Below the pieces are notes generated by a model. That model ran no database searches. It saw only the letters and a program-made list of their open reading frames with translations, and was not told where the DNA came from. The position numbers and the translations under genes are program-made. Shown here one piece after another: positions 27,878 through 39,480 of a DNA stretch of 64,000 nucleotides. Location: assembly GCA_018710845.1 (NCBI GenBank), contig DVJB01000062.1, positions 62,001-126,000 of the forward strand, read 5' to 3'. Positions within the stretch are counted from its first letter, which is position 1. Each line of letters opens with the position of its first letter. This DNA comes from Candidatus Onthomonas avicola. Lineage in GTDB: Bacteria > Bacillota > Clostridia > Oscillospirales > Oscillospiraceae.

Positions 27878-27906
27878 GTCACCCATTCACCGGAGCGGAA
27901 TAGACT
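27878..27906 (+). promoter_or_regulatory. Possible sigma-E-like promoter of cotJ
   Basis: GTCACCCA (27878-27885), 13 bp, AATAGACT (27899-27906). It resembles the candidate upstream of yunB (GTCACCCT-N14-CATAGACT) and weakly the sigma-E consensus. cotJ is sigma-E-controlled in Bacillus. It gives a ~40-base leader to the TTG start at 27945. Confidence 0.4.
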
Positions 27907-27944: not shown

Positions 27945-28394
27945 TTGAATACGGAAAAAAAGGCGACGGCCGCCTGCCCGGCCGGGCAGGGACCGCTCCC
28001 CAGCTGCGCGCCGCTGGCCGTGCCCAGCGTCCCGATGCAGCAGCAGGCCGAGCAGCGGTACAGCCAGTCGGAGGCACTGGCCCAGGGGACACTGTTTCCC
28101 GGGTTGAATCTGCCTTTCCATCTGCAGGTCAAAGGGGCGCAGGTCCCCAGAACGCCGCTGTCTGAGCTGCAGGCGCTCTGCTTTGTGGTGCATGAGCTAG
28201 GCCTCTATCTGGATACCCACCCGGACGACGCGGAGGCGTTCCAGCTCTATCAGCGCTATACAGTGCTGGCGCAGGAAGGTCGCAGCCGCTATGTGGAACA
28301 GTATGGCCCCCTGATGCAGACGGACGCCGCGCTGGCCGACCACTACAACTGGCTCCACGATCCGTGGCCGTGGGACTATGAGGAGGGCAAATAA
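27945..28394 (+). CDS. Fused spore-coat protein CotJA-CotJB
   Basis: In most spore formers cotJA and cotJB are two short genes; here one 149-residue frame carries both. The CotJA-like part (about 15-62) contains the pattern SEALAQGTLFPGLNLPF. The CotJB-like part (about 68-149) contains LSELQALCFVVHELGLYLDTHPDD and ends HDPWPWDYEEG, both family hallmarks. The start is a TTG preceded by AAGGAGGAG. No in-frame stop or frameshift separates the halves. It directly abuts cotJC. These are minor inner-coat proteins associated with the CotJC Mn-catalase. Confidence 0.85.
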   Translation: MNTEKKATAACPAGQGPLPSCAPLAVPSVPMQQQAEQRYSQSEALAQGTLFPGLNLPFHLQVKGAQVPRTPLSELQALCFVVHELGLYLDTHPDDAEAFQLYQRYTVLAQEGRSRYVEQYGPLMQTDAALADHYNWLHDPWPWDYEEGK

Positions 28395-28589
28395 ATGTTT
28401 TTCTACGATAAAAAGCTGCAGTACCCTGTTAAAATCCAGAACACCAATCCGAAGCTGGCCGCAATTATTATCAGCCAGTATGGTGGACCGGACGGGGAAC
28501 TGGGCGCGTCGCTGCGATATCTCAGCCAGCGCTACGCGATGCCCTATCCGGAACTGAAGGGCCTGCTCACCGATATCGGTACCTCATAG
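28395..28589 (+). CDS. cotJC: cotJC, 5' segment (spore-coat Mn-catalase, interrupted)
   Basis: The first 63 codons are normal CotJC (MFFYDKKLQYPVKI..., GGPDGELGASLRYLSQR with a metal-ligand Glu, then LLTDIGT). The reading frame then runs into foreign sequence and stops at TAG 28587-28589. Family members continue directly with EELGH, which supplies further Mn ligands. That continuation is found intact 4.97 kb downstream at 33.55 kb. The product as encoded here (64 residues) cannot be active. The gene follows cotJAB without a gap. Confidence 0.92.
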   Translation: MFFYDKKLQYPVKIQNTNPKLAAIIISQYGGPDGELGASLRYLSQRYAMPYPELKGLLTDIGTS

Positions 28590-28601
28590 CCGATCAGGAA
28601 C

Positions 28602-30134
28602 TCAGCGTTCCCCGGACGGCGCATCTCCGTCAGTGGCTGACATCCGGCGACATGGCAGCCAAAAGGTCCAACGATAGGGCAGTCCGGTCAGCTGAAGGGT
28701 CAGGCGACGGTCCGCCCCGACAGAGGCTTTTGCCAGGAGCAGCAGGCAGGCCTCGTCATCCGCGCCGGCCCTACGCAGCAGAGCGGATATCCTGGTCAGT
28801 ACCCTTCCATCATCCGGCGGCGAGACGGCACTCTGCCGCAATTCCTCCAGCCGGGTTTGCAGCTGTTTGACGGTTTGCCGGTAATGGCGGCAGAGGCGGT
28901 CGCATTCCCGCTGTGTAATCTGGCCGGAAAAACAGGCGTCCAGGACCTGGTCCAGCTTTTTCTCAACGCCGGCGAGCTCCCGTTCCAGTCGAAGACGCTC
29001 CGTCTCTGACGGCAGGCTGCCGCGCAGGAGCGTGCCGATCATCTCTGCGACATGCTGCTCAGGCAGCGGCAGCGTGGCAAGGGCCTGCCGCAGGCAGTCG
29101 TAGACTTGCTCCTCCCGCAGGGTAATCCCGGGCCGGCAGCCGGGCGTTTGACAGCTCCAGCGGCGATACACCCTGCCGTGCGAATCGGTCCGCTGTCGGG
29201 GCAGAAAGGGCGCCCCACAGCGCGCGCAGCATATTTTCCCGGAGAGCGGATAGGTGCGTCCCGGACTGTTCGGCGATGGAGCGCGCAGGCGACGCGCAGA
29301 GAGCTCCTCTTGTACCCGTTCCCAGAGGGCACGCGGAACGATGGGTGGATGATGCTCCCTGAGGATGACCAGTGGCTCTTCCCCGCAGTTCCGACGCCTG
29401 GCGTGAGAGAGGTAATCGGGGGTGATGGTCTTTTTCTGCACCAGATCACCCACATACTTTTCATTCCGCAGCAGCTTGACCAGATAGCCGGCAGACCAGC
29501 GAGGGTGCCCGCTGGGAGACGGGATCCCCTCTGCCTCCAGGGCATGGGCAATCGCGCGGACACTTTTGCGCTCCAGGCCATACAGGCAGAAGATGTGGCG
29601 GACCACCTCCGCTTCCTCCGGGCAGATGTCCAGGACGCCGTGGGATAAACGGTAGCCGTATGGAGCGCGGCCGAATACCACACCCTGTTCCATACGGCGC
29701 TGCTGCCCCCACTTGACGCGTGATGAGGTACGCCGGCTCTCTTCCTGGGCCAGAGAAGCCATGATGGACAGCCGCAGCTCGGCATCAGCGTCCAGCGTGT
29801 GGATTCCATCGTTTAAAAAACAGACACCGATGCCGAAGCGCTTCAGCTCGCGCGTATAGGCGATCGTGTCCAGGATGTTGCGGGAAAAGCGGCTGACCTC
29901 CTTGGTCAAGATCAGTTGAAACTTCCCTGCCCTGGCATCCTCCAGCATTTGCAAAAAGGCCGCGCGGTGCCGGGTAGATGTGCCGGAAATCCCCTCATCG
30001 GCGTAGATCCGGTAGAGCGTCCAGCCGGCATGCGCGCGGATATACTGGTCAAAAAAGCGCTTTTGACTGTCAAAGGAGCTGGCCTGGTCTGCCCCGTCGG
30101 TGGAAACCCGGCAATAGGCCGCCACTGATTTCAT
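28602..30134 (-). CDS. Large serine recombinase of the cotJC element
   Basis: A 510-residue SpoIVCA-type recombinase. The resolvase domain has the nucleophile Ser11 in AAYCRVSTD, then YADEGISGT and LTKEVSRFSRN. The 'recombinase' DNA-binding domain follows (FGRAPYGYRLS...ERKSVRAIAHAL). Next come a zinc ribbon (CCARCGAPF...SCQTPGC) and a C-terminal coiled coil (ELAGVEKKLDQVLDACF). The ATG at 30134 overlaps the upstream small gene by ATGA; the in-frame extension above it is spurious. It would excise the element and so restore cotJC, as SpoIVCA does for sigK. A sigma-E-like promoter precedes the two-gene unit. Confidence 0.93.
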   Translation of the reverse strand: MKSVAAYCRVSTDGADQASSFDSQKRFFDQYIRAHAGWTLYRIYADEGISGTSTRHRAAFLQMLEDARAGKFQLILTKEVSRFSRNILDTIAYTRELKRFGIGVCFLNDGIHTLDADAELRLSIMASLAQEESRRTSSRVKWGQQRRMEQGVVFGRAPYGYRLSHGVLDICPEEAEVVRHIFCLYGLERKSVRAIAHALEAEGIPSPSGHPRWSAGYLVKLLRNEKYVGDLVQKKTITPDYLSHARRRNCGEEPLVILREHHPPIVPRALWERVQEELSARRLRAPSPNSPGRTYPLSGKICCARCGAPFLPRQRTDSHGRVYRRWSCQTPGCRPGITLREEQVYDCLRQALATLPLPEQHVAEMIGTLLRGSLPSETERLRLERELAGVEKKLDQVLDACFSGQITQRECDRLCRHYRQTVKQLQTRLEELRQSAVSPPDDGRVLTRISALLRRAGADDEACLLLLAKASVGADRRLTLQLTGLPYRWTFWLPCRRMSATDGDAPSGER

Positions 30135-30304
30135 AGGCCGCTGAGCTGGGCTGCCGCCCGCCGATATTGCCCTTCGGTCAGGCAGCCGTCTTTGCGCAGC
30201 AGGAGCAAAACGGCGCAGCCCAGCGCGGTCTGAAAGGCGGGATAGCTCTGCCAGGGTATTGTCTCCGGGCAGTCGGTCTCCCAGTGGGAAAAAGCATCTT
30301 GCAT
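30131..30304 (-). CDS. Small protein coupled to the recombinase, candidate directionality factor
   Basis: A 57-residue protein (MQDAFSHWETD...) whose stop overlaps the recombinase start (ATGA). An AGGAGG ribosome-binding site lies 8 bases before the ATG; a GTG three codons upstream is less well placed. The C-terminal half, LLLRKDGCLTEGQYRRA, has the Leu-rich 'xLLxxGxLTExxYxxA' look of SHOCT-like short helices. Large serine recombinases need a small partner (recombination directionality factor) to excise. This gene's coupling makes it the obvious candidate, but that function is inference. Confidence 0.7.
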   Translation of the reverse strand: MQDAFSHWETDCPETIPWQSYPAFQTALGCAVLLLLRKDGCLTEGQYRRAAAQLSGL

Positions 30305-30324
30305 GGCACACACCTCCTGCCCAA

Positions 30325-30353
30325 AGGGTATGCGGCAGAAAAGTCAGTCTGAC
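30325..30353 (-). promoter_or_regulatory. Sigma-E-like promoter of the recombinase unit
   Basis: On the minus strand, GTCAGACT (30346-30353), a 13-bp spacer and CATACCCT (30325-30332). The -10 matches the sigma-E consensus CATACAMT at 7 of 8 positions, the -35 matches GTCATATT at 6 of 8. It fits in the 56-bp gap between the nuclease stop and the small gene, leaving a very short leader. spoIVCA of Bacillus is also sigma-E-dependent. Confidence 0.6.
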
Positions 30354-30360
30354 CTCCCGT

Positions 30361-31245
30361 TTACGGCTGGCAGAGACCGCAGGGCGTGTACCCATCCGCG
30401 ATCAGGTCATCGCGGCTGCCGGTGTAGTTCTCCCGGTTGGACGCACTCATGGTTTCAACCCCGGAGCAGTCCGGGAGGTGAAACTTCTTGGAGCGGGTGT
30501 TGAGCACGTATTCCTGCCGCTCAGTGTGTTCTGAGGATTCGGAGGAAGCCAGGCAGCTCTCTCCTGTGGCGTAGTCAATGCTTACGCCCGGCTGGCAGTT
30601 ATAGACATACACATCAAAGCAGACACCCTCTCCCCCGTCTTCCACACTCAGCGCCTCCATCCGGACTCCGCTGGCCACCAGATTGTCCCCTTCGTAGATG
30701 GGGGTGACGCGGTAGAGCACATGGTGCGATGTCTCCGTCACATAATCGGCCACCATCTCCTCGAACGGGAGCATCCCCTCCACATTGAAGTAGCGGGTGC
30801 CGGTGATCAGATTTTCCTCGTTGGCGTTCTCCCCGCTCAGTTGGTAGCCGATCAGATGGCAGCGGTTGTAGAGGTATCCGCCGTCCACACAGTCATATTC
30901 CACACTGTGCCAGCCGCTCGGCTCGACCTGGCCGATATCCCCGCGCTCCTCGTCCGGCATCAGGTCAGTTCCAATATTGGCATACGCGGCGCCGCAGCGG
31001 CCCAGGCTGTCAAGCGGTCTGTAGGTCTCGAAGGAGACGGTTGTCAGCTCTTCCTCAGAAAAATCTGGACAGTTGTCTTCCAGCACGACGTACGGCGTCC
31101 CGGAAAAGTCCGGAATCTCCTCCAGAGAGAGCTCGGAGACCGTCTCGGCTGTACCCGACTGCCCCGAGATCCTCCACTGGCAGGCAGTCATCGAGAGGCA
31201 GAGCGACAGGCACAGGAACAGGATCATCAGACGGAAACGATTCAT
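30361..31245 (-). CDS. Lipoprotein DNA/RNA non-specific nuclease
   Basis: A 294-residue protein with a lipoprotein signal (LCLSMTAC, lipobox Cys at about 22). The catalytic region reads YNRCHLIGYQLSGENANEENL, a variant of the DRGH box of EndA/NucA-type beta-beta-alpha-metal nucleases (DRGHLIA in classical members). A C-terminal module, LNTRSKKFHLPDCSGV...GYTPCGLC, has the His/Cys pattern of small Ada-like metal-binding tails found on such nucleases. It lies within the cotJC element as probable cargo. Roles in DNA uptake or nutrient scavenging are possible. ATG chosen at 31245 with GGAGG upstream. Confidence 0.78.
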   Translation of the reverse strand: MNRFRLMILFLCLSLCLSMTACQWRISGQSGTAETVSELSLEEIPDFSGTPYVVLEDNCPDFSEEELTTVSFETYRPLDSLGRCGAAYANIGTDLMPDEERGDIGQVEPSGWHSVEYDCVDGGYLYNRCHLIGYQLSGENANEENLITGTRYFNVEGMLPFEEMVADYVTETSHHVLYRVTPIYEGDNLVASGVRMEALSVEDGGEGVCFDVYVYNCQPGVSIDYATGESCLASSESSEHTERQEYVLNTRSKKFHLPDCSGVETMSASNRENYTGSRDDLIADGYTPCGLCQP

Positions 31246-31301
31246 CGAGATAATTCCTCCTCTAAGGAAAGCTGAAATCATGAAAAGAAATGGAAAACCG
31301 G

Positions 31302-31351
31302 TTGAATTCCAGGGGAAAATCGACTACAATAGATATATGAAAAAATCATAT
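31302..31351 (+). promoter_or_regulatory. Sigma-A promoter and inverted-repeat operator of the element's sugar kinase
   Basis: TTGAAT (31302-31307), a 17-bp spacer, TACAAT (31325-31330). Immediately downstream ATATGA-AAAAA-TCATAT (31335-31351) is a short inverted repeat placed where a repressor would block initiation. The kinase ATG follows at 31383 with AAGGAGG. Confidence 0.65.
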
Positions 31352-31382
31352 CAAAATCTTCCGCAAAAAGGAGGCCGTCGCG

Positions 31383-32471
31383 ATGGAACATACAAATCCT
31401 CTGCTTGACCACGATCAGAATCTGAAAAAGTTTATCACCATTGGAGAGATCATGCTGCGTCTCACGCCGCCCAACTATGAAAAAATCCGCATGGCCAGCA
31501 GCTTTGAGGCCAGCTATGGCGGCAGCGAGGCCAATATCGCACTGGCATTGGCCAATCTTGGCATCGACAGCACGTTTTTCAGCGTTGTGCCGAACAACAG
31601 CCTGGGAAAGAGCGCCATCCGCATGCTGCGCAGCAATGACGTGCACTGCACTCCCATGATTCTCAGCACCCCGGAAGAGACGCCGACGCACCGGCTTGGG
31701 ACCTACTATCTCGAAACCGGCTACGGCATCCGGGCCAGTAAGGTGACCTATGACCGGAAGCACAGCGCCATCACGGAATATGATTTCAGTCGGGTCGACC
31801 TGGATGCATTGCTGGACGGATTTGACTGGCTGCACCTGAGCGGCATCACGCCGGCACTTGGCCCTAACTGCCGGCAGCTGGTTCTCGATACGCTTCGGGT
31901 TGCCCGGGAGAAGGGCATGACCATCAGCTTTGACGGCAACTTCCGCAGTGCCCTCTGGTCCTGGGATGAGGCGCGGGATTTCTGTACCCAGTGTCTGCCC
32001 TACATCGATGTCCTGCTGGGAATCGAACCCTACCATCTCTGGCGCGACGAGGACGACCACAGTAAGGGAGACTGGAAGGACGGCATCCCGCTTCAGCCGA
32101 GCTATGAGCAGCAGGACATGATCTTTGAGGCGTTCCTGGCTCGGTACCCCAACCTGAAATGTATTGCCCGGCACGTCCGCTATGCGCACAGCGGCAGCGA
32201 AAACAGCTTGAAGGCGTATATGTGGTATGAAGGACATACCTTTGAGAGCAAGCTCTTTACCTTCAACATTTTGGACCGGGTCGGCGGCGGCGACGCCTTT
32301 GCCAGCGGGCTCATCTACGCGATGATCCACAACTACCGGCCGATGGACATGATCAATTTTGCGGTTGCCAGTTCGGCTATCAAGCACACGATCCATGGCG
32401 ATGCCAATATCACAGATGACGCGCAGACCATCCGGGACCTGATGAACATGAACTACGACATTCGCCGCTAA
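31383..32471 (+). CDS. PfkB-family sugar kinase, KdgK-like (intact)
   Basis: A 362-residue ribokinase-family protein resembling 2-keto-3-deoxygluconate kinase. The substrate-side motif GGSEANIALALANLG and the C-terminal signature LDRVGGGDAFASGLIYA are intact, including the catalytic Asp. It is closely related in layout to the operon kdgK at 35 kb (both have FGELM/IGEIMLRL near the N-terminus and ITPALGPN). It lies inside the cotJC intervening element, on the opposite strand from the recombinase. Its stop overlaps the convergent kinase by 4 bp. It could supply the activity missing from the damaged operon copy. Confidence 0.82.
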   Translation: MEHTNPLLDHDQNLKKFITIGEIMLRLTPPNYEKIRMASSFEASYGGSEANIALALANLGIDSTFFSVVPNNSLGKSAIRMLRSNDVHCTPMILSTPEETPTHRLGTYYLETGYGIRASKVTYDRKHSAITEYDFSRVDLDALLDGFDWLHLSGITPALGPNCRQLVLDTLRVAREKGMTISFDGNFRSALWSWDEARDFCTQCLPYIDVLLGIEPYHLWRDEDDHSKGDWKDGIPLQPSYEQQDMIFEAFLARYPNLKCIARHVRYAHSGSENSLKAYMWYEGHTFESKLFTFNILDRVGGGDAFASGLIYAMIHNYRPMDMINFAVASSAIKHTIHGDANITDDAQTIRDLMNMNYDIRR

Positions 32472-33496
32472 TTCCGCCGCGGCGGACTGCCGCACGATTT
32501 GACAGCGCTAAGCGGGGAGAGAGCCTCCCTGCTCAGCGCTTCGACGTCAGAGGAGGTCAGAGATTCCGCCCACGCGACAGACCCGGTAGAGGCAACGGCA
32601 TGCGCGCCGCAGGCGTTGGCAAACCGGGCACAGGCAAGCATGTCCCACCCCCTGGAGAGCGCAAAGAGAAACCCAGCTGCAAAGCTGTCCCCCGCCCCGG
32701 TGGTATCAATACAGCGCACGCCGCTGGCTACCGGGACGTATTGGGCAAACTGCCCGTCACGCAGATAACAGCCGCGCGCGCCGCATTTGATCACCACGTG
32801 ACCGACTCCGGCGCGGTGCAGCTGTTCGGCGGCCTGCTCGACCCCGTCTGCACCGGTGAGCGCAATGGCCTCCCCTTCATTGGGAAAGAGAAAATCCACA
32901 TACCTAAGCGCCTCGGCAAGATCCTCGAGCCGTTCCCCGTGCTTTGGGCGGGTCAGGTCGGCACAGATCGTGAGTCCCTGTGCCCTGGCGGCGCAAAAGA
33001 GCGCGGACAACCCTTTCGTACGCAGATGCGGGGATACAAAAATGCTGGCTAGGCAGAGAATGCCCGCCTGCGGCGGGAAAGAGAGCGAGAGATCGTCCAG
33101 GCGCAGGCTGCGCAGACTGCCAGTGGGATTGGTGAGAAAGCTCCGCTCCCCATTTGCCTGTATCAATACGACGTTGATGCCTGTCTCCAACCCAGTACGA
33201 ACGGGGTGACCGAGCAGGGAGATGCCGCAGTTCCGGCAATGGCGCAGGATGACTTGACCGGCCGTATCTTCCCCGATCACGGTTTGCAGAAAGACTTCGG
33301 CTCCCAGCCGGGCCAATATAGTGGCCTCATTGAGGGCGTCTCCGCCGACGGAGAGACGGATTTCCTCTGCCGGGATAGAGCCGGACACAAAAACCTCCGG
33401 TCCTGCTGGACGGACAAGAACGTCCAAAATTCCTGCCCCGACCAGAACGACGGCGCGCCGCTGCCCCGGTGAAGCGGGGCGGATTTGCTCAGGCAT
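32468..33496 (-). CDS. PfkB-family carbohydrate kinase
   Basis: A 342-residue ribokinase-like kinase. GGDALNEATILARLG is the N-terminal PfkB signature and CIDTTGAGDSFAAGFL the C-terminal one with the catalytic Asp. The substrate is not evident; ribose, adenosine-like nucleosides or keto-sugars are all possible. It is the last gene of the cotJC element, starting about 55 bp from its right boundary. It is transcribed away from the cotJC 3' segment. The C-terminal tail (about 25 residues rich in Ser/Leu/Pro) has no counterpart in typical members. Confidence 0.82.
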   Translation of the reverse strand: MPEQIRPASPGQRRAVVLVGAGILDVLVRPAGPEVFVSGSIPAEEIRLSVGGDALNEATILARLGAEVFLQTVIGEDTAGQVILRHCRNCGISLLGHPVRTGLETGINVVLIQANGERSFLTNPTGSLRSLRLDDLSLSFPPQAGILCLASIFVSPHLRTKGLSALFCAARAQGLTICADLTRPKHGERLEDLAEALRYVDFLFPNEGEAIALTGADGVEQAAEQLHRAGVGHVVIKCGARGCYLRDGQFAQYVPVASGVRCIDTTGAGDSFAAGFLFALSRGWDMLACARFANACGAHAVASTGSVAWAESLTSSDVEALSREALSPLSAVKSCGSPPRRN

Positions 33497-33545
33497 GGCC
33501 GGTAATTCCCCCTTTCAGGCGGCTGTGTTCCGCAATGACCATGAG

Positions 33546-33962
33546 ATAGGGACTGAAGAGCTGGGACATCTGGAGATGGTTGCCTCTATTGTGCACCAAC
33601 TGACCAGAAAGCTCTCCGACGAGCAGATTCGGGAGAGCGCCTTTGCACCTTATTTTGTCGATCACACGACCGGCGTCTATCCCACCGCAGCCTCCGGATT
33701 CCCCTGGTCGGCCGCTGGCATTGGCGTCAAGGGGGATGTCATCTGTGATCTGACAGAGGATATGGCAGCAGAGCAGAAGGCCCGTGTGACCTACGACAAT
33801 ATCCTGCGGCTGTCAGACGATCCAGACGTCAATGATGTCATCCGTTTCCTGCGCGAGCGTGAGATCGTCCACTTCCAGCGTTTTGGCGAGGCGCTGGAGA
33901 AAGCAAAGGAAAAGATGAATCAAAAAAATGTCTATTTCACCAATCCGGCGTTTGACCGCTGA
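33546..33962 (+). CDS. cotJC: cotJC, 3' segment (interrupted)
   Basis: Starting at ATA GGG ACT GAA GAG CTG, the frame encodes the rest of CotJC. It begins IGTEELGHLEMV, which carries metal-ligand Glu and His, and includes HTTGVYPTAASGFPWSA, the DVICDLTEDMAAEQKAR helix and the C-terminal REREIVHFQRFGEAL. From the shared IGT it supplies 135 residues to the stop. With the 63 upstream codons this makes 198 residues, the normal CotJC length. Upstream in-frame codons belong to the element, and the in-frame ATG at 33495 has no ribosome-binding site. The segment is therefore probably silent until the element is removed. Confidence 0.92.
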   Translation: MGTEELGHLEMVASIVHQLTRKLSDEQIRESAFAPYFVDHTTGVYPTAASGFPWSAAGIGVKGDVICDLTEDMAAEQKARVTYDNILRLSDDPDVNDVIRFLREREIVHFQRFGEALEKAKEKMNQKNVYFTNPAFDR

Positions 33963-34075: not shown

Positions 34076-34930
34076 TTACACTCCGGAATAGGCGGAGAAA
34101 CCACCGTCGATGGGGATGCAGACACCGGTGATAAAGCTGGCCGCCTCGTTGTTGAGCAGGAACAGGACGGCGCCCGCCAATTCGGTCTCCGTGTCACCAA
34201 AGCGCCCCATCGGCGTGGCAGCCAAAATCTTTCCGGTCCGTGCCGTGGGAGTGCCGTCGGGATTGAAGAGGAGCGCAGCGTTCTGCTTGGTGGAGAAGAA
34301 TCCGGGGGCGATCGCGTTCACGCGGATGCCGACGCGAGAGAAGTGAACCGCCAGCCACTGGGTGAAGTTGCTCACCGCCGCCTTCGCACCGGAATAGGCG
34401 GGGATCTTGGTCAGCGGGGTGTAGGCATTCATAGAGCTGATATTGAGAATATTGCAGCCGGGACGCCCCACCATCTGGCGGGCAAATGCCTGCGTGGGCA
34501 GAAGAGTGCCAATGAAGTTCAGATTAAAGACAAACTCCGCGCCGCTCTTCTCCAGGTCAAAGAAGCTCTTAGTGTCCGCGTCGATGTCGCCGACCTCGTA
34601 GTACTCCTTATCTGTCGTTGCACGGGGATTGTTGCCGCCAGCGCCGTTGATCAGAATATCGCAGGGGCCAAGGTCAGCGGCGACTTGATCCGCCACGTCG
34701 TAGCAGTTCTCTTTCTCCAGAACATTGCACTTGTATGCCTTGGCGACGCCGCCCTCGGCGACAATCTCGTCGGCAAACTTCTGCGCAGCCTCCAGATTCA
34801 GGTCGAGCAGGGCGACCTTGGCACCCGCCCGGGCCAGCACCTTGGCAAACGCGGAGCAGAGCACACCGCCTGCGCCGGTCACAGCGGCGACCTTTCCGGT
34901 CAGATCGGTGTTCAGTACGTTCTTTTCCAT
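34076..34930 (-). CDS. uxuB: SDR-family D-mannonate oxidoreductase (fructuronate reductase)
   Basis: A 284-residue short-chain dehydrogenase. The NAD-binding TGAGGVLCSAFAKVLA, NGAGGNNP and catalytic Ser-Tyr-Lys (NISSMNAY...PAYSGAKAAV) are present. Several Firmicutes use an SDR of this kind, instead of the long-chain UxuB of E. coli, to reduce D-fructuronate to D-mannonate. It lies with uxaC, uxuA, kdgK and eda, which supports that role. It is the last gene of the minus-strand operon, with GGAG before the ATG. Confidence 0.83.
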   Translation of the reverse strand: MEKNVLNTDLTGKVAAVTGAGGVLCSAFAKVLARAGAKVALLDLNLEAAQKFADEIVAEGGVAKAYKCNVLEKENCYDVADQVAADLGPCDILINGAGGNNPRATTDKEYYEVGDIDADTKSFFDLEKSGAEFVFNLNFIGTLLPTQAFARQMVGRPGCNILNISSMNAYTPLTKIPAYSGAKAAVSNFTQWLAVHFSRVGIRVNAIAPGFFSTKQNAALLFNPDGTPTARTGKILAATPMGRFGDTETELAGAVLFLLNNEAASFITGVCIPIDGGFSAYSGV

Positions 34931-34950
34931 GATGTAATCTCCTTCCCGGC

Positions 34951-35964
34951 TCAGCGCTGTACACGGCCGGAGCCGCTGCCGCCGGCCAGTTTTTCCACCT
35001 CGTCCACGGTGACAAAGTTATAGTCGCCCTCAATGGAGTGCTTGAGTGCGGAGGCTGCGACCGCAAACTCCACCACCTCCTGCGTGCTCTTGCCGGAAAG
35101 CAGGGCATAGATCAGGCCGCCGCCGACGCGGTCGATGATGTGCAGGTGATAGAGCTTGGAGAAGCAATACTCGCCGCTGGCCACATCGTAGAGCATGGCG
35201 CTCCAGTCGTTATCAAACGCGGACTTGCTCTCACGCAGGGTGATGGCGACCTTCTCAAAGCCAAACTGATCGGCCAGCTGCTTGGCCACGCTCTTGTAGC
35301 CCTCCTTGTTCAGCTCACCGGCGTTGATATCCGTGTTGGCCGCCTCGATGCCGAAGACATCCTTTGCGTCCTCCTCGTTGGAGATGCAGACGTCCACATA
35401 CTGGCAGAGGTCGGTCATCGCCGCGCGCGCCTCAGCGCGGGTCCATAGCTTGCCGCGGTAGTTCAGGTCACAGGAGATCTTGACCCCCTTGGCCTTGGCG
35501 GCCTTGCAGGCCTGACGGCAGATCTCAACTACATTGGGGCCGAGGGCCGGGGTGATTCCGGTGAAGTGGAACCAGGACGCGCCGTCAAAGATAGCATCCC
35601 AGTCGAAGTCCTCCGGAGAGGCCTCCGCGATGGCGCTGTGGGCACGGTCATAGATGCAGACGCTGCCGCGCTGAGAGGCGCCCTTCTCCAGGAAATAGAT
35701 TCCCACGCGGTCGCCGCCGCGGGTGATGTCGCTGGTATCCACGCCATACTTGCGCAGGCTGTTGACCGCCATCTGGCCAATGGCATGCTTGGGCAGCTTG
35801 GAGACGAAGTGGGCATCCAGGCCGTAGTTGGCCAGACTGACCGCCACGTTGGCCTCGCCGCCGCCGAAGGTAGCCTCAAAACTGTCAGCCTGGATAAAGC
35901 GCAGGTAGTCATACGGCTGCAGGCGCAGCATCAGTTCGCCAAAGGTGATCACTTTTTTAGACAT
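34951..35964 (-). CDS. kdgK: 2-keto-3-deoxygluconate kinase, missing catalytic-loop residues
   Basis: A 337-residue PfkB kinase. The start ITFGELMLRLQPYDY and GGGEANVAVSLANYG are typical of KdgK, and the operon position between eda and uxuB fits. However, the C-terminal PfkB signature reads IIDRVGGGLIYALL, where relatives read DRVGGGDAFASGLIYA. Six residues, including the catalytic Asp and the following helix start, are absent while the frame is kept. In DNA this is an 18-bp loss next to a GGC repeat. The enzyme is predicted inactive. I chose the ATG at 35964 (GGAGG nine bases upstream) over a TTG two codons earlier. Confidence 0.85.
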   Translation of the reverse strand: MSKKVITFGELMLRLQPYDYLRFIQADSFEATFGGGEANVAVSLANYGLDAHFVSKLPKHAIGQMAVNSLRKYGVDTSDITRGGDRVGIYFLEKGASQRGSVCIYDRAHSAIAEASPEDFDWDAIFDGASWFHFTGITPALGPNVVEICRQACKAAKAKGVKISCDLNYRGKLWTRAEARAAMTDLCQYVDVCISNEEDAKDVFGIEAANTDINAGELNKEGYKSVAKQLADQFGFEKVAITLRESKSAFDNDWSAMLYDVASGEYCFSKLYHLHIIDRVGGGLIYALLSGKSTQEVVEFAVAASALKHSIEGDYNFVTVDEVEKLAGGSGSGRVQR

Positions 35965-35998
35965 ATGCAATGGCCTCCTTAATAAACGCTATGGAAAG

Positions 35999-36946
35999 TT
36001 ACTTCTGCACCAGATGGATGGCAAAGCCGGCGATCTCGTCCTGGAAATAGGCCGCCTTGGCGGTGACCGTCTCCTCGCGGAAGGCAAAGCCGCGGTTTTT
36101 GAAGTAGGCGATCGCGCGCGGCAGGGTGTTGGTGCCGATCGCGATGTGGCCGTTGGCGCCGAGATACTGGCTCTTCATGACCTCGATCTCCTTCTTGCCG
36201 ACAAAAATGCTGCTGTTCCCCTCTGCAACCGGGAGTCCGAACATAGTCTGGAACATCTGGGCAGCCGTGCGCGCCTCCTCGGCGTTTTCGGTGTTGATGC
36301 CCACATGCATCAGCTCAAAGCCCATCATGGTGTTGACTGCCTCGCGAGTCAGGCGCTCGATTTCCGCCCAGTTCTCGCTCTCGATCAGGTCCTTTTTCAC
36401 CATCCAGGTGCCGCCGCAGGCGATGATCTTCGGGAAGCTCAGGTAGTCGAGCAGATTCTTGGCGTTGACGCCGCCGGTGGGCATCCAGCGCAGGTTGCCA
36501 TAGGGGCCGGCCACTGCCTTGAGCTTGGCCACGCCGCCGTTCTGCTCGGCCGGGAAGAACTTGACCACGTCCAGTCCCATTGCCATCGCCTGCTCCATCT
36601 CGCCGGGGGTGGCGGTTCCGGGCATCATCAGCATGCCGCGGTCGATGACGTATTTGGTGATCTCCGGATTGAAGCCAGGGCTGACGATAAACTTGACGCC
36701 GGCATCAATCGCGCGGTCCACCTGGTCCTTGGTCAGGACGGTGCCAGCACCCACCAGCATCTCAGGGACTTCCGCCACGATCCGGCGGATGGCCTCCTCA
36801 GCGGCAGCTGTGCGGAAGGTCACCTCGGCGGCGGGCAGGCCGCCGGCTACCAGTGCCTTGGCCAGCGGCACAGCCTTCTCGGCGTCGTCAATGGCGATGA
36901 CCGGAACAATACCGATCTCATAGATTCTTTGAAGTACTTCGTTCAT
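35999..36946 (-). CDS. eda: KDPG/KHG aldolase with C-terminal VOC-like domain
   Basis: Cleaves 2-keto-3-deoxy-6-phosphogluconate to pyruvate and glyceraldehyde-3-phosphate. Residues 1-205 form the class I aldolase, with the catalytic Glu in AAEVTFRT and the Schiff-base Lys in VVKFFPAEQNG. About 100 further residues (FELMHVGINTENAEEA... to the C-terminus) look like a vicinal-oxygen-chelate/glyoxalase fold half. This fused form, 315 residues instead of about 210, occurs in some Clostridia. The added domain's function is unclear. GGAGGG precedes the ATG; the gene is between uxuA and kdgK. Confidence 0.9.
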   Translation of the reverse strand: MNEVLQRIYEIGIVPVIAIDDAEKAVPLAKALVAGGLPAAEVTFRTAAAEEAIRRIVAEVPEMLVGAGTVLTKDQVDRAIDAGVKFIVSPGFNPEITKYVIDRGMLMMPGTATPGEMEQAMAMGLDVVKFFPAEQNGGVAKLKAVAGPYGNLRWMPTGGVNAKNLLDYLSFPKIIACGGTWMVKKDLIESENWAEIERLTREAVNTMMGFELMHVGINTENAEEARTAAQMFQTMFGLPVAEGNSSIFVGKKEIEVMKSQYLGANGHIAIGTNTLPRAIAYFKNRGFAFREETVTAKAAYFQDEIAGFAIHLVQK

Positions 36947-36982
36947 CGGATGAGTCCCTCCTTTTGGATATATGCTGGGGCT

Positions 36983-38047
36983 TTATACCCCTTGCTTTTC
37001 CCACTTCAGCTGCTTCTCGCAGGCCTCAAACAGGCCGTTGATGTAAGTCGCGCCGAGCGCGCGGTCGTACAGGCCATAGCCCGGCTTGCCGGTCTCGCCC
37101 CAGATCATGCGGCCGTGGTCCGGACGGACATAGCCGTCAAAGCCGGTCTCCACCAAGGCGCGGACGATCTCATAGATATCCAGGCTGCCACAGCTGGACA
37201 GGTGTGCACGCTCCTCAAAGCTGCCGTCGTCCATGATCTTGACATTGCGGATATGCATAAAGCCGATTCGGCCGGCGGCGGAGTACTTGCGCACCATGGC
37301 GGGGATATCGTTGCTGCGCGCGCAGCCCAAACTGCCGGTGCACAGACAGAGAGAATTGGCCGGGGAATCCACAATGGAGAGATAGCGGTCCAGATTCTCC
37401 TCGCAGGTGATCACACGCGGAAGTCCGAAGATCGGATACGGGGGATCATCAGGATGCAGTGCCATCACCACGCCGCACTCTTCGGCGACCGGAATCACAC
37501 GCTTGAGGAAGATCTCAATATTCTTCCACAGTCCCTCCTCGCCCAACTCACCGTAGGCGCGGATCAGGTCACGAACCTCCTCCTGCGTATAGCTGGAGTC
37601 CCAGCCGGGGAGATGGATGTCGTCCTTGAGCGGATCGAGTCCACGCATCTGGTCCCAGTACATGACCAGACTGGTGGAGCCGTCAGGGGCCTTGCGGTCC
37701 AGCTGTGTCCGGGTCCAGTCAAAGACAGGCATGAAATTATAGGTGACACATTTGACGCCATACTTGGCGCAGCGGCGGATATTTTTGCAATAGACGTCAA
37801 TGTGCGCATCGCGCTTTTCCGTGCCCAGCTTGATATCCTCGCTGACGGGGATGGACTCCACCACGTCAAAGACCAGATTGTGCGCCTCGCACTGCTCCTT
37901 CAGACGCTGGATGGATTCTTCCGGCCAGACCTCTCCGGGCTTGACGTCATAGACAGCGGAGACGATGGAACGCATCCCCGGAATCTGACTGATATATTCC
38001 AGTGAGATAGGGTCGGACTCACCATACCAGCGAAATGACAGTTTCAT
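36983..38047 (-). CDS. uxuA: Mannonate dehydratase
   Basis: Dehydrates D-mannonate to 2-keto-3-deoxygluconate. The 354-residue protein starts [16 protein letters not shown], typical of the family, with AAGGAGG upstream. The metal-binding [16 protein letters not shown] segment and C-terminal [13 protein letters not shown] are diagnostic. An 11-residue in-frame extension above the chosen ATG overlaps the uxaC stop and is unlikely. The uxaC-uxuA pair is separated by 29 bp. Confidence 0.95.
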
Positions 38048-38076
38048 AAAATACCTCCTTCCGATCGCTTCAGAGA

Positions 38077-39480
38077 TCAAAGATTAAAGTAACGCTTGGC
38101 GTTGCGATAGGAGATGTCCTGCACCAGACCGCCCAGATAGGGGATGTCGGCCGGATACTCGCCGTGCTCCACCCAGCGCCCGAAGAGGGAGCAGAGAATG
38201 CGGCGGAAGTACTCATGCCGGGCATAGCTGAGCAGGCTGCGGCTGTCGGTGAGCATGCCGATGAAATTGCCCAGAACGCCCAAGTTGCCCAGACTGCTGA
38301 GCTGATCGGTCATGCCGATCTTGTTGTCATTGAACCACCAGGCGCTGCCGTGCTGGATCTTGCCGGGGATCTCGCTGCTCTGGAACGCGCCGAGCAGGGT
38401 GTCCAACCATTCGTTATCCGCCGGGTTCAGACTGTAAAGAATGGTCTTCGGGAGCTTCCCTTCCCGCTCCCAGGCATCCATCAGGGCGTAGGTGGCCGCG
38501 CAGCTGTCGGTGACCGCCATGCAGTCAAAGCCGGTGTCCGGGCCGAGTTGGGCGAGCATCCGGCTGTTGGGGTTGCGCACGCAGCTGAAGTGCAGCTGCA
38601 TCGCCCAGTTATGAGCAGCGTACTCCCGGCCGCAGTGGAGCAGCAGGGCGGTCTGATAGCCCTCTGTCTCCTCCTTGCTGACCGGTTCGCCGGCGAGTGC
38701 CTTTTGCAGCGCGGCGGTGGCCTCCTCGTCGCTGACGGGATGGTACATCACATAGTCCAGGCCGTGGTCCGCCGCGCGGCAGCCGTTGGCGTCAAAATAG
38801 GCGATGCGCGCGCTCAGGGCATCCTTCACATCCTGTACGGTGGAGAGAGTCATCCCTACCGTCTCGCCGAGCTGTGCGATATAGGCGGCAAAGCCGAGCT
38901 TGTGGATGTTTAGCGCCGGATCGGGGCGGAAACTGGGGCAGACCTTGGTAGTAAAGGAGGCATCCTCCCGCAGTTTCTTGTGCCAGGCGAGATCACTGCA
39001 CGGGTCGTCCGTCGTGCCCACCATGGCGACATTGCTGCCCTGAATCAGGCCGCGGGCGCTCATGGACGGGTCATTTTGCAGCTTCTCATTGCATAGGTTC
39101 CAGATCTCCTCCGCGGTGTCGGCGTTGAGGACGCCCCGGTAGCCGAAATAATTCTTCAGCTCCAGATGGCACCAGTGATAGAGCGGGTTGCCGATGGCCC
39201 GCGGCAGTGTCTCGGCAAATTTCTGGAATTTCTCACGATCGGGAGCATCCCCGGTGATGTAGTATTCGTCCACACCGTTGGAGCGCATCAGGCGCCACTT
39301 GTAGTGATCTCCGCCCAGCCAGACCTGCGTGATGTTCTCAAAACGCCGGTCTTCATAGATCTCCTTCGGGTCAATATGGCAGTGATAGTCCACGATCGGC
39401 ATCGAGGCGGCGTATTCGTGATAGAGCGTCCGCGCCGTGGCAGTGTCCAGAAGGAAATCGTCGGTCAGAAATGTGTTCAT
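38077..39480 (-). CDS. uxaC: Glucuronate isomerase
   Basis: Isomerises D-glucuronate to D-fructuronate (and galacturonate to tagaturonate). The 467-residue length is normal. Diagnostic stretches are [14 protein letters not shown] near the N-terminus (metal-binding His pair), [13 protein letters not shown], and [19 protein letters not shown] and [14 protein letters not shown] near the C-terminus. It has a GGATG-type ribosome-binding site. Position directly after the sugar symporter marks entry of glucuronate into the Ashwell pathway encoded by the following genes. Confidence 0.96.

What the first reader, a model, noticed from the sequence alone, without database searches (positions are those of the whole stretch)
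28395..33962. Spore-coat gene cotJC is split in frame by a 4.97-kb element carrying a SpoIVCA-type recombinase
Directly visible: codons 1-63 of CotJC end at DIGT, and the remaining 135 codons start with IGTEELGHLEM 4971 bp away. Joining them gives a 198-residue, full-length Mn-catalase. The break falls just before the metal-binding EELGH motif, so the interrupted gene must be inactive. A large serine recombinase gene sits against the left break, as in the sigK skin element. By analogy with skin and the other sporulation intervening elements, programmed excision in the mother cell is the likely outcome. I know of no described cotJC intervening element, but cannot search.
Basis: partly seen in the sequence, partly recalled or inferred. 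Interest (0 to 1): 0.97.

Follow-up and report, generated by a model that had tools for sequence, protein, structure and literature searches.

The report
Split spore-coat gene with excisable insert
In this bacterium the only copy found of a spore-coat catalase gene is cut in two, in frame, by a 5-kb DNA element carrying its own recombinase, which is predicted to cut the element out in the mother cell during spore formation; the same gene is cut at the same codon in many related bacteria, and other elements cut it at four further codons.

Summary
cotJC is split in frame at codon 62 by a 4,971-bp element encoding a large serine recombinase; the joined gene encodes 198 residues and no other copy was found. 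It is one of many: of the 80 best recombinase relatives in named genomes, 76 lie near cotJC pieces. The predicted circle junction is an inverted repeat centred on the shared GG here and in 29 of 34 loci with both ends. A relative carries the same three cargo genes in the same cotJC slot; both cotJC pieces diverged at synonymous sites (dS 1.1) but hardly in protein (dN/dS 0.02-0.04), as expected if the gene works although split. The recombinase operon starts with an undescribed small gene and has a mother-cell-type -10 box (47 of 70 loci, 3.5 expected). Other recombinase types sit at codons 31, 136 and 175; codon 65 is cut too. Related recombinases abut dpaA pieces. Best reading: sporulation-timed excision rebuilds cotJC. 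Excision was not observed. My paper searches (open-licence PMC only) found no cotJC intervening element.

The parts
27878..27906 (+). promoter-like GTCA-N17-AATAGACT in front of the cotJ operon
   Evidence: read by eye, placed; differs from CATANNNT in one base, and the scan did not list it
27945..28394 (+). fused cotJA-cotJB gene, 149 aa, directly upstream of cotJC
   Evidence: PF11007 and PF12652 in one ORF
28395..28579 (+). cotJC 5' piece: codons 1-61 and GG of codon 62
28553..28604 (+). attL region, core GG at 28578-28579
   Evidence: dyad analysis
28580..33550 (.). intervening element, 4,971 bp
28602..30134 (-). large serine recombinase, 510 aa
   Evidence: PF00239, PF07508, PF13408; placed in the cotJC-associated group of a 129-row tree
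30131..30313 (-). small partner gene, 60 aa, overlapping the recombinase start; candidate directionality factor (inferred)
   Evidence: same position in 70 of 83 recombinase loci; no shared Pfam or NCBIfam family; two C-terminal helices in the model
30325..30353 (-). mother-cell-type promoter-like site GTCA-N17-CATACCCT
30361..31281 (-). cargo: DNA/RNA non-specific endonuclease family protein
   Evidence: PF13930; single copy in the genome
31383..32471 (+). cargo: KDG-kinase-like PfkB protein
   Evidence: PF00294 and best NCBIfam hits, below their cut-offs
32468..33496 (-). cargo: PfkB sugar kinase
   Evidence: PF00294
33524..33575 (+). attR region, core GG at 33549-33550
33551..33962 (+). cotJC 3' piece, begins after GG of codon 62

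Best explanation
This is a sporulation gene-intervening element in cotJC that is predicted to be excised in the mother cell by its own serine recombinase, rebuilding the coat Mn-catalase gene. Shown by sequence: the split is in frame, both ends carry the same GG, the circle junction would be a dyad centred on GG, the recombinase sits in an operon with a conserved small gene behind a CATANNNT box, and both cotJC pieces evolve under strong purifying selection. Inferred: a mother-cell sigma factor (sigma-E or sigma-K) switches the operon on; the small protein acts as directionality factor; attL and attR recombine at GG and release a 4.97-kb circle; composite cotJC is then expressed with cotJA-cotJB; the forespore keeps the element, so it and its cargo are inherited.
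For: In-frame join to 198 aa and no other copy found. Dyad on GG: 17/25 here, highest at GG in 29 of 34 loci, 26 of 30 distinct. Of the 80 best relatives of the recombinase, 76 lie near cotJC pieces; all 56 counted full-length 5' pieces in the genome set are open. Same cargo trio, order and strands in G025; cotJC pieces dS 1.11 and 1.14, dN/dS 0.036 and 0.024. CATANNNT before the recombinase operon in 47 of 70 loci, 3.5 expected; 15 of 30 clusters; the same box before cotJA in 51 of 75. Spo0A and SpoIIID are encoded.
Against: No excised junction was seen: an attP consensus scan of viral contigs found 0, and the genome-wide scan did not complete. The window's recombinase lies on a long branch and its attP arms depart from the family consensus. 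The recombinases of window and G025 sit at opposite ends of their elements and apart in a quick tree, so one may be a replacement or the insertions may be independent. 23 of 70 loci lack the box. 9 of 40 high-scoring loci had no cotJC match. 12 of 30 joined genes were not full length; 11 of these appear broken at a second site, one had no stop within reach.
Confidence: 0.85

Rival explanations
1. A site-specific mobile element that uses conserved codons of a dispensable spore gene as its attachment site and leaves cotJC inactive.
For: Near-identical recombinases in hosts with saturated cotJC divergence show horizontal movement; 11 of 80 related viral loci have cotJC pieces.
Against: Both split pieces stay open and constrained in the window-G025 pair and other pairs. 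A decayed 3' piece with stop codons was seen where an intact cotJC also exists, G018.
Confidence: 0.08
2. The element excises, but at random or on stress, without sporulation control; occasional excision keeps cotJC useful.
For: In the C. botulinum yin element excised forms were seen at all time points (PMC10747680, passages); 23 of 70 loci lack the CATANNNT box.
Against: Strong positional enrichment of the mother-cell-type box before recombinase operon and cotJA; the host gene serves sporulation only (established knowledge of the family).
Confidence: 0.05
3. In this particular genome the recombinase has lost function and cotJC is now a recent pseudogene.
For: Long recombinase branch, recombinase dN/dS 0.375 against G025, diverged arms.
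Against: Recombinase open over 510 codons, positions invariant in the five-row alignment kept, dyad kept at 17/25, both cotJC pieces intact.
Confidence: 0.05
4. Misassembly of two unrelated contigs.
For: The genome is a 72-contig draft.
Against: Same break with matching cores in 34 loci, shared cargo in G025, and a single-contig 2.19-Mb genome with a 3.1-kb element.
Confidence: 0.01

Closest known systems
skin element in sigK (B. subtilis, C. difficile)
   Same: Serine recombinase element splitting a mother-cell sporulation gene; in C. difficile a recombinase plus a directionality factor excise it (PMC5025042, passages).
   Different: Other gene; the window's element has no recognised phage gene; five target sites in one gene across hosts.
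gin element in gerE (B. cereus)
   Same: Non-phage element in a sporulation gene, excised by a serine recombinase with an accessory factor (PMC5595907, passages).
   Different: 28.6 kb with three recombinases in a regulator gene; here about 5 kb, one recombinase, a coat enzyme gene, metabolic cargo.
SPbeta in spsM; vfbin in spoVFB; vrin in spoVR; yin in yabG
   Same: In-frame interruption of mother-cell genes, rebuilt or thought to be rebuilt by excision (PMC4191935, PMC10747680, passages).
   Different: Prophage or prophage-like, one site per gene in the passages read; here a broad recombinase group in many hosts.
Prophage phi027 of C. difficile R20291
   Same: Lies beside a CotJC-like Mn-catalase gene (PMC11222575, passages).
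   Different: That gene is described as downstream of attR, not as split; no developmental excision in the passages read.

Membership tests
sporulation gene-intervening element | lies inside the coding region of a sporulation gene | tested here: met
   two cotJC pieces around the element
sporulation gene-intervening element | encodes a site-specific (serine) recombinase | tested here: met
   three diagnostic domains
sporulation gene-intervening element | attL and attR share a core flanked by inverted repeats | tested here: met
   GG core, dyad 17/25
sporulation gene-intervening element | excision would restore the reading frame | tested here: met
   198-residue joined frame
sporulation gene-intervening element | recombination directionality factor | tested here: inconclusive
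   conserved small ORF in 70 of 83 loci, no known family, no assay
sporulation gene-intervening element | expression controlled by mother-cell sigma factors | tested here: inconclusive
   CATANNNT enrichment, motif level only
sporulation gene-intervening element | excised as a circle during sporulation | not testable with these tools
   no reads; attP scan of viral contigs 0; genome scan unanswered
skin (sigK) element | inserted in sigK | tested here: not met
   inserted in cotJC
skin (sigK) element | recombinase orthologous to SpoIVCA | not tested
   no SpoIVCA sequence was compared
fdxN-element recombinase XisF | NCBIfam NF041201 above its cut-off | tested here: not met
   109.5 bits, cut-off 375

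The most novel reading that the evidence does not exclude
cotJC is a multi-berth docking gene for DNA splicing: separate serine-recombinase families have each specialised on one codon of the same gene (about 31, 62, 65, 136, 175), so that in many Clostridia one coat catalase gene is kept as two to four DNA 'exons' and assembled only in the mother cell by recombinases driven from the same type of promoter as cotJ itself, while the elements act as permanent carriers of metabolic genes.
Probability: 0.62. Interest if true: 0.93.

Novelty: new variant of a known kind. Interest (0 to 1): 0.86.

Why it matters
In the accounts read, intervening elements are single cases: one gene, one site, one or a few species. 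Here one gene is split across a bacterial order: 56 of 394 sampled genomes carry the high-scoring recombinase group, and 31 of 40 such loci fetched have a cotJC match. Long persistence with strong constraint on both halves is a sequence-only argument that excision really happens. Named strains such as Flavonifractor sp. An10 and Pseudoflavonifractor strains would make it directly testable, and the mapped sites make the recombinases possible tools.

Tried and rejected
Led nowhere or weak: attP consensus in viral contigs, 0 hits; known family for the small partner, none shared; its AlphaFold model, two confident C-terminal helices, not searched further; sigma-A boxes before the recombinase operon, not enriched, 16 of 70 against 14.3; strict sigma-K spacing, 0 of 70. 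The first box test, with first-in-frame starts, gave 26 of 70 against 6.7 for one form of the box; choosing starts by Shine-Dalgarno gave 48 of 70 against 9.6; a slice that cut off the nearest positions gave 36 of 70; one search is the figure used, and the binomial number printed there is meaningless and unused. Misassembly rejected by comparison. Plain inactivation rejected as main reading because of selection. Papers: ten searches; seven papers read by passages only; other papers holding 'cotJC' were judged by listing.
Full report
OBSERVATION. cotJC codons 1-61 plus GG of codon 62 lie at 28395-28579 and the rest at 33551-33962; the same GG ends the left piece (28578-28579) and opens the right one (33549-33550), 4,971 bp apart, and joining at GG gives one 198-residue frame. 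A search of the 2.39-Mb draft with the Mn-catalase family finds only these two pieces. Inside lie, from the left, a 510-residue large serine recombinase, a 60-residue ORF overlapping its start, an endonuclease-family protein, a KDG-kinase-like PfkB protein and a second PfkB kinase. No phage gene was recognised among these five.

ATTACHMENT SITES. Joined as a circle, the ends give 17 of 25 inverted-repeat matches centred on GG; the next centre in that scan scores 11, an alternative shared dinucleotide 12, and 17 or more occurs at about 7 in 100,000 random window positions. The same test gives 16 for G025, 14 for G011 and 21 for G047, all on GG. Over 34 loci holding both ends (30 distinct), the dyad is highest at GG in 29 (26 of 30 distinct); sizes are 3.5-14.6 kb, biased by fetched stretches of about 20 kb. 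Two further loci found by another rule score 13 at GG with joined genes of 198 residues; one is the single-contig genome G277, with a 3.1-kb element. The family's ends, read by eye, resemble GGTnnCATTTTGACCC..TGTA-GG-TACAGAAGGGTCAAAATGnnACC; the window's arms depart from this but keep the dyad.

HOW COMMON. CotJC was searched in 59 genomes, the own one included: 53 have a match. By my reading, 13 of 59 are interrupted by an element: G000, G025, G011, G030, G008, G015, G021, G005, G036, G047, G057, G058, G050. For G030, G036, G021, G005 and G050 only one side was seen, and for G047, G058, G008 and G015 the sides are on different contigs. G002, G037 and G056 were left out as contig edges or unclear; G013 and G029 have frame shifts. 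Intact cotJC stands behind the same cotJA-cotJB gene in 27 of 28 loci checked, L013 being the miss. With an alignment of five recombinases the best 80 of at least 561 related loci in named genomes were fetched: 76 of 80 hold a cotJC match; in viral contigs 11 of 80. Counted were 5' pieces whose match starts at codon 1 and reaches codon 60: 57, of which 56 are open with a start codon, the exception being viral. This rule favours intact pieces; twelve further pieces starting at codons 28-34 were listed apart, and L134, L148 and L157 (starts at codons 8-18) were not counted. In 394 sampled genomes of the order, 135 have a hit at 1e-100; the scores then show a gap, and 56 genomes (62 hits) lie at E <= 1e-136; at most three candidates per genome were scored. 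Of 40 of these 62 hits fetched, 31 have a cotJC match in the stretch. Of the other nine, four lie against one piece of dpaA (N-terminal part in L247 and L277, C-terminal part in L251 and L253); the missing dpaA parts were not sought, and five loci are undetermined.

SELECTION. G025 (L053) holds the same three cargo genes in the same order and strands between its cotJC halves: nuclease 71%, KDG kinase 94%, PfkB 66% identical. The simplest reading is one ancestral insertion. Against G025 the cotJC pieces have dS 1.11 and 1.14 and dN/dS 0.036 and 0.024; the cargo KDG kinase dS 1.02 and 0.037, PfkB 1.37 and 0.210, nuclease 0.99 and 0.217, the recombinase 1.42 and 0.375; the host genes next door dS 0.60 and 0.254 (cotJA-cotJB) and 0.61 and 0.043 (SDR). 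Intact cotJC pairs with dS 0.3-2 had a median of 0.174 (42 pairs from 13 genes), so split genes are at least as constrained. Other pairs in which recombinase and cotJC have similar synonymous divergence: L083-L092 pN 0.000 at pS 0.498, L101-L103 0.007 at 0.401, L106-L108 0.018 at 0.415; their right pieces, where tested, dN 0 at dS 0.43 (L101-L103) and 0.013 at 0.99 (L106-L108). Pairs with nearly identical recombinases but saturated cotJC (L114-L136, L117-L124) show horizontal movement. A decayed 3' piece exists in G018, which also has an intact cotJC. These are Nei-Gojobori estimates; dS near 1 is approximate. Against one insertion: in the window the recombinase is at the left end, in G025 at the right, and the two are apart in the tree.

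CONTROL REGION. A small ORF directly upstream of the recombinase, same strand, occurs in 70 of 83 loci, the window included; a few loci are duplicates of one genome. It has no shared known family. Before this operon CATANNNT starts at -45 to -20 in 47 of 70, against 3.5 expected from 712 other genes of the same loci; by clusters at 70% recombinase identity, 15 of 30. The window has GTCA-N17-CATACCCT, 28 bases before the start. Before cotJA 51 of 75 loci carry CATANNNT within 110 bases, against 13.5% of control genes within 100. GTCA-N16..18-CATANNNT occurs in 9 of 75 cotJA, 11 of 70 recombinase and 4 of 708 control upstreams. The window's own cotJA has AATAGACT instead and was not picked up by the scan. 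In C. difficile sigma-E and sigma-K promoters share very similar -10 elements, with CATATTAT and CATATAAT as examples, and the operons of the Mn-catalases CotCB and CotD, and dpaA, are listed in the sigma-K regulon (PMC3789822, passages). This genome encodes Spo0A and SpoIIID.

OTHER SITES. Other elements cut cotJC at codon 31 (G057, core GG, weak dyad 13/25), 65 (G057, G058, core GA, 18/25), 136 (G008 20/25, G015 19/25, core GA) and 175 (L153, core GA, 18/25). Each site goes with its own recombinase type where one was found: codon 31 the G057a/G050 type (L100, L126, L250), codon 65 the G057b type (G057 only), codon 136 the G015 type (L094 64%, L244 74%, G008 88%), codon 175 recombinases 24-28% identical to the window's (L101, L103, L107, L126, L153; in L110 the hit is 22% to G057b). 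Three pieces are seen directly in G057, L094 and L153; L126 has three recombinases around two middle pieces, which predicts four. Against: the L094 codon-136 dyad is weak (12/25), the G011 junction near codon 136 has none (9/25), and no recombinase was found in the G058 stretches. That these codons lie near the metal ligands of Mn catalases is recalled; one search shows only the alignment to solved Mn catalases.

TREE. In a quick tree of 129 recombinases the cotJC label needs 8 changes against 24.9 in shuffles; the window falls in a 102-row group with 97 cotJC rows (support 86), on a long branch, and the G025 row falls elsewhere in that group. The dpaA label is not clustered (4 rows, 4 changes).

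JUDGEMENT. The element works like known sporulation intervening elements and meets the four membership features that could be decided here; excision, directionality factor and sigma control are not proven. Five sites in one gene with distinct recombinase types, ordinary metabolic cargo and the breadth of hosts are not in the passages I read of PMC5595907, PMC10747680, PMC4191935 and PMC5025042. No paper on a cotJC intervening element appeared; the library lacks most subscription papers and all preprints, so earlier description cannot be excluded.

Noticed in passing
L247:8670-9284, L251:8693-9235, L253:3105-3554, L277:5286-5693: Related recombinases lie directly against single pieces of dpaA (spoVFA), broken near residues 131-145 of the family models, so dpaA looks like a second split sporulation gene in these Clostridia.
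   Followed up: partly
window 27945-28394: cotJA and cotJB are fused into one 149-residue ORF, and the same single alignment is seen in relatives.
   Followed up: partly
window 34076-38080: Downstream lies an apparent sugar-acid operon (SDR, a PfkB kinase resembling KDG kinase, aldolase-like and dehydratase-like ORFs), while the element carries its own KDG-kinase-like gene; the aldolase and dehydratase names are recalled from the translations.
   Followed up: no
L053:1545-14211 (G025): The 14.6-kb G025 element also carries siroheme synthesis, sulfite/nitrite-reductase-like, YaaA-like and peroxiredoxin genes, that is ordinary metabolic genes.
   Followed up: partly
L075:3511-3648 (G018): A decayed cotJC 3' piece with an in-frame stop next to an attR-like end, in a genome that also has an intact cotJC.
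   Followed up: no
L152: A contig titled Bacteroides sp. carries a cotJC element piece; probably a mis-binned Clostridia contig.
   Followed up: no
L114-L116, L136; L117, L118, L120, L123, L124: Near-identical recombinases next to very divergent cotJC genes: recent horizontal spread of some codon-62 elements.
   Followed up: partly
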